DNA from: Paraconexibacter algicola
GTDB lineage: Bacteria; Actinomycetota; Thermoleophilia; Solirubrobacterales; Solirubrobacteraceae
NCBI RefSeq assembly: GCF_003044185.1
Contig: NZ_PYYB01000004.1
Coordinates: forward strand, 124,001 to 188,000
DNA length: 64,000 bases
Reading direction: 5' to 3'
Below are positions 25,989-27,506 of the stretch, piece after piece; positions within the stretch are counted from its first letter, which is position 1, and every line of letters begins with the position of its first letter. The translations under genes were made by a program, and so were the position numbers. The notes under the pieces are model-generated. The model ran no database searches. It was not told the DNA's origin and was given only the letters and a program-made list of their open reading frames with translations.

Positions 25989-27227
25989 ATGGCTGCAGAA
26001 GCGCTGAAGTGCCGGGAGTGCAAGACCGAGTACCCGCTGGAGGCCCACTACGTCTGCGAGCGGTGCTTCGGCCCGCTGGAGGTCTCCTACGCCCACAAGC
26101 CCGTCACCGACGTGGCGGAGGCCCGCCGCCGCATCCAGGCGGGCCCGCAGAGCGTCTGGCGCTACGCGGACTTCCTGCCGCTCGCCGGCGGCCCGCCGCA
26201 GGTCGGCCTGCCGGCCGGCTGCACGCCGCTGATCAAGGCGGACCTGCTCGCCGAGCGGCTCGGGATCAAGGAGGTCTGGGTCAAGAACGACACCGCGAAC
26301 CCCACGCACTCGTTCAAGGACCGCGTGGTGTCGGTCGCGACCGCCCGGGCCCGCGAGCTCGGCTTCGAGGTGCTCGCCTGCGCCTCGACCGGCAACCTCG
26401 CCAACGCCGTCGCCGCCCAGGCCGCCGCGCTCGGGATGGAGTCCTACGTCTTCATCCCCGCGAACCTCGAGGAGCAGAAGATCCTCGCCACGGGCGTGTA
26501 CGGCACGAACGTCGTCGCCATCCACGGCAACTACGACGACGTCAACCGCCTCTGCACCGAGGTCAGCGGCGAGCGTGAGGGCTGGGCGTTCGTGAACGTC
26601 AACATGCGCCCCTACTACGCCGAGGGCTCTAAGACGATCGCCTACGAGATCGCCGAGCAGCTCGGCTGGGAGACCCCGGACCGCATCGTGTCGCCGATCG
26701 CGTCCGGCTCGCTCTTCACGAAGATCGCCAAGGGCTTCGAGGAGTGGCTGGAGCTCGGCCTCATCACCGGCTCGCTGCCGAAGATGAACGGCGCCCAGGC
26801 CACCGGCTGCTCGCCCGTCGCCCAGGCCTACGAGGCCGGCCACGACGTCTGCCGCCCGGTCAAGCCGGACACGATCGCCAAGTCGCTGGCGATCGGCAAC
26901 CCGGCCGACGGCCCGTACGCGGTCGAGCTCGCCCGTCGCAGCGACGGGGGCGTCACCGCCGTCACCGACGACGAGATCCGCGCGGGCATCCGGCTGCTGG
27001 CCGAGACGACCGGCATCTTCACCGAGACCGCCGGCGGCGTCACCACCGCCGTGCTGCAGAAGCTCGCCGAGCAGGGCGAGATCGGCAGCGACGAGCGCGT
27101 CGTCATCGTCATCACCGGCGACGGCCTGAAGACCCTCGACGCCGTCCGCGACACGTTCGAGACCCACACCATCGATCCCACGTTCGACGCGTTCGAGGAC
27201 GCGTTCGCGATTGGAGCCGCGAAGTAG
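25989..27227 (+). CDS. thrC: Threonine synthase-family PLP enzyme, likely tied to sulfur/methionine metabolism
   Basis: 412 aa. An N-terminal four-Cys zinc ribbon (C8, C11, C23, C26) precedes a fold-type II PLP domain. The PLP Lys is K110 in NPTHSFKDR; ASTGNLANAVAAQAA binds the PLP phosphate or substrate, and TAGGVTTAVLQKL and VIVITGDGLKT follow. By family it would turn O-phosphohomoserine into threonine. But it sits behind a SAM-I riboswitch and abuts a CysO-like sulfur carrier, so it may instead join sulfide from that carrier to O-phosphohomoserine, giving homocysteine. The ATG at 25989 is set by GGAGG in the terminator arm. The enzyme class is certain, the reaction is not. Confidence 0.85.
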   Translation: MAAEALKCRECKTEYPLEAHYVCERCFGPLEVSYAHKPVTDVAEARRRIQAGPQSVWRYADFLPLAGGPPQVGLPAGCTPLIKADLLAERLGIKEVWVKNDTANPTHSFKDRVVSVATARARELGFEVLACASTGNLANAVAAQAAALGMESYVFIPANLEEQKILATGVYGTNVVAIHGNYDDVNRLCTEVSGEREGWAFVNVNMRPYYAEGSKTIAYEIAEQLGWETPDRIVSPIASGSLFTKIAKGFEEWLELGLITGSLPKMNGAQATGCSPVAQAYEAGHDVCRPVKPDTIAKSLAIGNPADGPYAVELARRSDGGVTAVTDDEIRAGIRLLAETTGIFTETAGGVTTAVLQKLAEQGEIGSDERVVIVITGDGLKTLDAVRDTFETHTIDPTFDAFEDAFAIGAAK

Positions 27228-27506
27228 ATGAGCATCAAGGTCAAGCTGCCCACCCAGCTGCGTGCCGCCGCCGGCGGCGCCTCCAGCGTCGAGGTCGACG
27301 GGGCCACCGTCGGCGAGGTGCTCGCCGCCGTGTACGAGGTGCACCCGGAGCTGAAGGACCGCCTCGCCGACGAGGACGGGTCGCTGCGCCGGTTCGTGAA
27401 CGTCTACGTCGGCGGCGACGACATCCGCTTCGGCGACGGCCTCGACACGAAGGTCGCCGACGGCGCCGAGGTGCAGGTCCTGCCCGCGGTCGCGGGCGGC
27501 TGCTGA
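27228..27506 (+). CDS. CysO/MoaD/ThiS-like ubiquitin-fold sulfur carrier ending Gly-Gly-Cys
   Basis: 92 aa, ATG directly after the thrC-like stop, so the two are translated together. The beta-grasp pattern (VKLPTQLRAAAGG, VGEVLAAVYEVHPELKDRL, RRFVNVYVGGDDIRF, VQVLPAVAGGC) closely follows mycobacterial CysO. Carriers of this type are activated at the C-terminal Gly-Gly by an E1-like enzyme, loaded with sulfur as a thiocarboxylate, and hand it to a PLP enzyme. Here one Cys follows the Gly-Gly, so a peptidase (Mec/HcyD/QbsD type) should first remove it. Neither the E1 nor the peptidase is in the window. Confidence 0.88.
   Translation: MSIKVKLPTQLRAAAGGASSVEVDGATVGEVLAAVYEVHPELKDRLADEDGSLRRFVNVYVGGDDIRFGDGLDTKVADGAEVQVLPAVAGGC

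What the first reader, a model, noticed from the sequence alone, without database searches (positions are those of the whole stretch)
27474..27506. Sulfur carrier ends Gly-Gly-Cys instead of a free Gly-Gly
The chain ends LPAVAGGC. CysO-type carriers need a terminal Gly-Gly for adenylation. Known precedents (QbsE, HcyS, PdtH) carry extra C-terminal residues that a JAMM-type peptidase removes. A single Cys extension may be a maturation checkpoint, or the Cys may itself take part in sulfur handling.
Basis: partly seen in the sequence, partly recalled or inferred. Interest (0 to 1): 0.6.

Follow-up and report, generated by a model that had tools for sequence, protein, structure and literature searches.

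The report
Sulfur carrier with one-residue cysteine cap
This small sulfur-carrier protein ends in one extra cysteine after its working Gly-Gly tail; such caps come and go among its relatives, are probably trimmed by a peptidase encoded elsewhere in the genome, and a one-cysteine cap was already published for a Streptomyces protein, so it is essentially ordinary.

Summary
The 92-residue CysO-like carrier at 27228..27506 ends LPAVAGGC (ggc ggc tgc tga). It follows a threonine-synthase paralogue. The genome encodes exactly one JAMM peptidase, a Mec homologue beside cysM, and a second CysO that is also capped (GG-AA). Maturation by Mec in trans is therefore plausible.

The Cys itself is not conserved. 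Of 87 thrC-linked relatives in the class, 62 end in free GG, 10 in R, 7 in C, 4 in A, and S, RR, E and QA occur once each. Cys arose at least six times. The two same-genus relatives have no cap. The one-codon caps are best read as triplet insertion (GGCTGA to GGCTGCTGA), not stop loss, which would add a median of 59 residues. A Cys-only cap on a sulfur carrier, with a JAMM peptidase needed genetically, was published in 2018 (PtmS3/PtmS1, PMC6006322).

One point deserves follow-up. In Geodermatophilaceae the tail is only ever nothing (27) or Cys (52), and the Cys codon never varies. A GG-Cys end is chemically the CysO-cysteine adduct that Mec hydrolyses. Cys may be a favoured cap there, but nothing shows that for the window protein. 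Verdict: a new member of a known kind, low interest.

The parts
27228..27506 (+). CysO-like sulfur-carrier gene (92 codons and stop), ThiS/MoaD fold, ends ...LPAVAGGC
27495..27500 (+). Gly-Gly codons (ggc ggc), the functional C-terminus after maturation
   Evidence: aligned with the Gly-Gly ends of 3dwg_C and 4n6e_B
27501..27503 (+). extra Cys codon (tgc), the one-residue cap; consistent with a triplet insertion in GGC|TGA giving GGC|TGC|TGA
27504..27506 (+). stop codon tga
25989..27227 (+). PLP enzyme annotated as threonine synthase; a paralogue, because the genome has a canonical hom-thrC-thrB cluster elsewhere. Directly upstream of the carrier and conserved next to it across the class

Best explanation
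This is a CysO-type sulfur-carrier protein made with a one-residue cap (Cys) after Gly-Gly. The cap most likely arose recently by insertion of one TGC/CTG triplet before the stop codon (GGC TGA to GGC TGC TGA). It is tolerated because the genome's single Mec-type JAMM peptidase can remove it. The exposed Gly-Gly is then adenylated and thiocarboxylated by the MoeZ-type E1 encoded in the same cluster as Mec, and passed to a PLP enzyme, probably the adjacent threonine-synthase paralogue. Shown here: the sequence, the insertion-like pattern, the scattered distribution, and the presence of Mec and MoeZ. Inferred: cleavage by Mec, activation by MoeZ, and the sulfur acceptor. The Cys needs no special role. 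Mec is known to hydrolyse the CysO-cysteine adduct, so an encoded Cys cap gives it what should be its natural substrate.
For: One Mec-type JAMM in the genome, next to cysM, with MoeZ and a second capped CysO (GGAA) in the same cluster. Caps are common and varied: about half of 102 carriers in a phylum sample, with many different residues; 25 of 87 thrC-linked carriers in the class. Cap states change about 18 times on the thrC-linked tree; C changes at least 6 times, and the nearest relatives L017 and L019 are uncapped. Stop loss would add a median of 59 residues, with 0 of 90 adding one. Sister genes differ by an added TGC before the stop. JAMM genes are in 79 of 80 genomes with such carriers and in 8 of 8 GGC genomes checked. 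Literature: Mec hydrolyses CysO-cysteine (PMC3227635); PtmS3 carries a single C cap and loss of the JAMM PtmS1 abolishes sulfur delivery (PMC6006322).
Against: No cleavage was measured. One genome (G065, 97% complete) has capped carriers (QA and R) but no detected JAMM, so another peptidase or an assembly gap must be allowed. Mec is nearly universal in the sampled genomes, so co-occurrence cannot test dependence. In Geodermatophilaceae the Cys codon looks constrained, which a purely tolerated cap would not predict there.
Confidence: 0.75

Rival explanations
1. Selected adduct mimic: the encoded Cys is kept because it makes the nascent protein identical to the CysO-cysteine adduct, so Mec processes it with the specificity it already has. 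Cys is then the preferred cap, and maturation is tied to the activity of the pathway.
For: Geodermatophilaceae: 52 C, 27 none, no other residue in 79 loci sampled blind to the cap, and at least 11 switches. The TGC codon has 0 changes where adjacent noncoding sites have 3-15 within all-C clades. Cys is over-represented at the first cap position compared with an assumed ~1% background (5 of 50 and 6 of 38). GGC carriers recur in Nocardioides, Gordonia, freshwater actinobacterial MAGs, Nitrosospira and Pseudomonas.
Against: Elsewhere A, M, S, R, Q, G and E caps occur, several of them more often than C. The window's own clade shows no retention of Cys. Triplet insertion beside TGA by itself favours Cys.
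Confidence: 0.15
2. The C-terminal Cys thiol itself takes part in sulfur handling or redox control, for example by persulfide formation or disulfide locking, without being removed.
For: Only that the residue is a Cys next to the reaction centre.
Against: Adenylation and thiocarboxylation take place at the terminal Gly (MoaD and CysO; PMC3227635, PMC4326299). Homologues in the same gene pair do without Cys or carry R, A, S or E.
Confidence: 0.04
3. A dead-end change: the cap blocks this carrier, and its function is taken over by the second CysO.
For: The genome has a second CysO with cysM, moeZ and mec.
Against: The rest of the protein is intact and alignable over its full length. Caps are widespread in intact genes. 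Mec is present.
Confidence: 0.06

Closest known systems
PtmS3 of Streptomyces platensis CB00739, with JAMM PtmS1 (PMC6006322)
   Same: Sulfur carrier with a single Cys after GG. The construct PtmS3-GG was residues 1-91, so the full protein is about 92 aa, as here. One JAMM gene in the genome; loss of the JAMM stops sulfur delivery.
   Different: Its sequence was not compared here. It supplies thioplatensimycin biosynthesis in that strain, whereas the window gene sits next to a thrC paralogue.
Mycobacterium tuberculosis CysO with CysM, Mec and MoeZ
   Same: Fold and full-length similarity (3dwg_C, E 4e-19). Mec, MoeZ and CysM homologues are in the genome.
   Different: Mtb CysO ends at Gly-Gly. 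The window carrier is linked to a threonine-synthase paralogue, not to cysM.
QbsE/QbsD, PdtH and HcyS/HcyD (JAMM-matured carriers)
   Same: Short extension after GG removed by a JAMM peptidase (QbsD as cited in PMC6006322; the rest from general knowledge).
   Different: Other cap residues and pathway-specific gene clusters. In the window genome the JAMM gene is on another contig.

Membership tests
CysO-type sulfur carrier (ThiS/MoaD fold) | ThiS/MoaD beta-grasp family by profile | tested here: met
   PF02597 E 6e-15; CysO structures matched full length
CysO-type sulfur carrier (ThiS/MoaD fold) | Gly-Gly at the position that becomes the C-terminus | tested here: met
   AGG aligned with the ends of 3dwg_C and 4n6e_B; one extra Cys follows
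CysO-type sulfur carrier (ThiS/MoaD fold) | genetic link to CysM (cysteine synthase partner) | tested here: not met
   The neighbour is a threonine-synthase paralogue; cysM lies by the other CysO. Filed as CysO-like, not as the CysM partner.
CysO-type sulfur carrier (ThiS/MoaD fold) | activation by a MoeZ-type E1 to a thiocarboxylate | not testable with these tools
   A MoeZ gene is present in the genome; the activity needs the bench
Capped sulfur carrier matured by a JAMM peptidase | one or more residues after GG in the gene | tested here: met
   Cys codon 27501-27503
Capped sulfur carrier matured by a JAMM peptidase | JAMM/Mec gene with intact catalytic motif in the genome | tested here: met
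   G000:C2:352255-352593, E 1e-17; HSHVMSAPEPSQTD and upstream Glu
Capped sulfur carrier matured by a JAMM peptidase | JAMM gene clustered with the capped carrier | tested here: not met
   Mec is on contig C2 with the other CysO; the window gene is on C4.
Capped sulfur carrier matured by a JAMM peptidase | removal of the cap | not testable with these tools
   needs mass spectrometry
SAMP1 protein modifier (NCBIfam NF041918) | above the curated score | tested here: met
   75.5 bits against 60
SAMP1 protein modifier (NCBIfam NF041918) | conjugation to target proteins | not testable with these tools
   no claim of membership is made

The most novel reading that the evidence does not exclude
Some bacteria encode their sulfur carrier as the finished pathway intermediate (CysO-Gly-Gly-Cys). 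The product-releasing peptidase Mec then also matures the new protein, and Cys, as opposed to any other residue, is kept by selection for that reason (best case: Geodermatophilaceae).
Probability: 0.15. Interest if true: 0.45.

Novelty: new member of a known kind. Interest (0 to 1): 0.2.

Why it matters
Taken alone it matters little: a Cys-capped carrier with a required JAMM peptidase is already in print. The survey adds that caps on CysO-type carriers turn over quickly, usually by whole codons before the stop, and so are poor evidence for a special function. It also points to one family, Geodermatophilaceae, where the cap is always Cys or absent and the codon appears constrained. That makes the adduct-mimic idea directly testable.

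Tried and rejected
Cys conserved across Thermoleophilia: rejected. Cap by loss of the stop codon: rejected, since the next in-frame stop lies a median of 59 codons on and 0 of 90 cases would give one residue. Association of caps with Mec: not informative, because 79 of 80 genomes have a JAMM gene. The pair as the cell's only homocysteine route (thrC-like enzyme plus carrier): weakened, because two strong Cys/Met-metabolism PLP genes exist. The pair as the cell's threonine synthase: weakened by a hom-thrC-thrB cluster elsewhere, 36% identical. Pseudomonadaceae survey with the same pattern: mostly matches that do not look like carriers, and among those that do only the starting genome shows GGC. 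The papers on QbsE and on BexX/CysO were not held. No structure was predicted: the fold is not in doubt, and a single-chain model would not show Mec specificity.

Full report
Observation. The ORF at 27228..27506 codes for 92 residues and ends QVLPAVAGGC; the last codons are ggc ggc tgc tga at 27495-27506. It belongs to the ThiS family (Pfam E 6e-15) and passes the NCBIfam SAMP1 cut-off. Against solved structures it aligns over residues 1-91 with M. tuberculosis CysO (3dwg_C, E 4e-19) and with 4n6e_B. Both of those end at ..LPAVAGG, so the window protein has one extra residue.

Surroundings. The gene directly follows a PLP enzyme named threonine synthase (25989..27227), and this pairing is kept across the class. 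The genome has a second thrC inside a hom-thrC-thrB cluster (hom and thrB read by eye from the translations), 36% identical to the window enzyme, so the window enzyme is a paralogue of unknown substrate. Four ThiS-type proteins exist in the genome: the window one; a second CysO ending AMAGGAA beside moeZ and near cysM and mec; a MoaD-MoaE fusion; and ThiS ending QGG. Exactly one Prok-JAB (JAMM) gene was found, E 1e-17. It carries the motif HSHVMSAPEPSQTD and an upstream Glu. The identical position of the Mec hit in G254 ('same order') and in G657, the genome of Solirubrobacterales bacterium 67-14, indicates that the window lies in the same order as that organism.

Is the Cys conserved? No. Among the 30 nearest (the window gene included) 24 end at GG, 3 have C, 1 has S and 2 have R. 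Among 87 thrC-linked carriers of the class (window included), 62 have no cap, 10 R, 7 C, 4 A and one each of S, RR, E and QA. On a tree of ThrC plus carrier core, with the tail left out, C changes at least 6 times and starred branches force all six. The window row's closest rows, L017 and L019 of the same genus, are uncapped. In 102 carriers from a phylum sample 52 have no cap; first cap residues are A 13, M 9, S 9, R 7, C 5, Q 3, G 2, E 1, H 1. In Nocardioidaceae 43 of 81 have no cap, with AR 11, C 6, AA 5 and others. These pattern-based counts may contain some chance matches; only rows with an in-frame stop were used.

How the cap arises. If the stop codon of the uncapped genes were lost by a point mutation, the tail would have a median of 59 residues and in 0 of 90 cases exactly one. 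Observed caps in those sets are one or two residues. Sister pairs such as L023/L026 differ by an added TGC before the stop, and all Geodermatophilaceae genes sampled read GGN TGA or GGN TGC TGA. Insertion or loss of a triplet at GGCTG(CTG)A by slippage is the simplest reading. It is an inference from the pattern.

Where Cys looks selected. That scan selects for Cys, so Geodermatophilaceae were resampled with a pattern blind to the cap: 79 usable loci, 52 C, 27 none, no other residue. The state changes at least 11 times on the tree (starred branches force 4). Among C rows the three TGC sites show no change, against 7-21 per site in noncoding DNA downstream. Restricted to clades that are all C, so that repeated gain cannot refresh the codon, TGC still has 0 changes against 3-15 per noncoding site. 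A rough Poisson probability is 6e-6 with sites +6 to +11 as the yardstick, and about 1e-3 with the three slowest neighbouring sites. A conserved coding site in this very conserved protein also often shows zero, so this says 'constrained like a coding residue', no more.

Mechanism. Known: CysM joins O-phosphoserine to CysO thiocarboxylate and Mec hydrolyses the CysO-cysteine adduct, regenerating CysO (PMC3227635). After an S-to-N shift that adduct ends Gly-Gly-Cys with an amide bond (general knowledge of the pathway, not checked in a held paper). A gene-encoded GGC is therefore the same chemical end as Mec's natural substrate. This makes removal by Mec likely without any new specificity, and removes the need for a special role of the thiol. 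Shown here: sequence, gene content and distribution. Inferred: cleavage, activation and acceptor.

Test of the JAMM link. JAMM genes are present in 8 of 8 GGC genomes checked and in 79 of 80 genomes with known tails. The exception, G065, has capped carriers and no detected JAMM. Since nearly all genomes have one, the survey cannot test dependence.

Prior art. PMC6006322 (2018) describes in Streptomyces platensis two capped carriers, PtmS2 (MV) and PtmS3 (a single C), one JAMM (PtmS1) and two carriers with free GG. Loss of PtmS1 stopped thiocarboxylic acid formation, while loss of PtmS2 did not, which the authors explain by redundancy with PtmS3. A Cys-only cap on a carrier that probably depends on a JAMM is therefore known. 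The gene-neighbourhood link of ThiS/MoaD, JAB and cysteine synthase was described in 2006 (PMC1779556).

Verdict. A true but ordinary feature: a new member of the capped, JAMM-matured sulfur carriers, with Cys as one of many interchangeable caps in this clade. Interest is low. The possible preference for Cys in Geodermatophilaceae is the only part worth a bench test.

Noticed in passing
L004 (G000:C1:1979418-1979636), outside the window: A MoaD-MoaE fusion (..VSGG-APRVHV..) resembling mycobacterial MoaX, which must be cut after Gly-Gly to work (PMC4326299); the genome's single JAMM could be the cutter.
   Followed up: partly
25989..27227: The enzyme named threonine synthase is a paralogue beside a sulfur carrier, with a canonical hom-thrC-thrB cluster elsewhere (L389). 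It may be a carrier-dependent sulfur enzyme of unknown substrate, and the pair is conserved across the class.
   Followed up: partly
genome G065 (loci L054, L365): Capped carriers (R and QA) but no JAMM gene detected in a 97% complete assembly.
   Followed up: no
G017: L013/L057 and L387: Both CysO paralogues of one genome (thrC-linked and cysM-linked) end in GGC.
   Followed up: no
large genomes (6-10 Mb) of group g136 in the phylum sample, probably Streptomyces: Caps there nearly always start with Met (MA, MR, MV, MH), matching PtmS2 (MV); the Met is conserved while the second residue varies.
   Followed up: no
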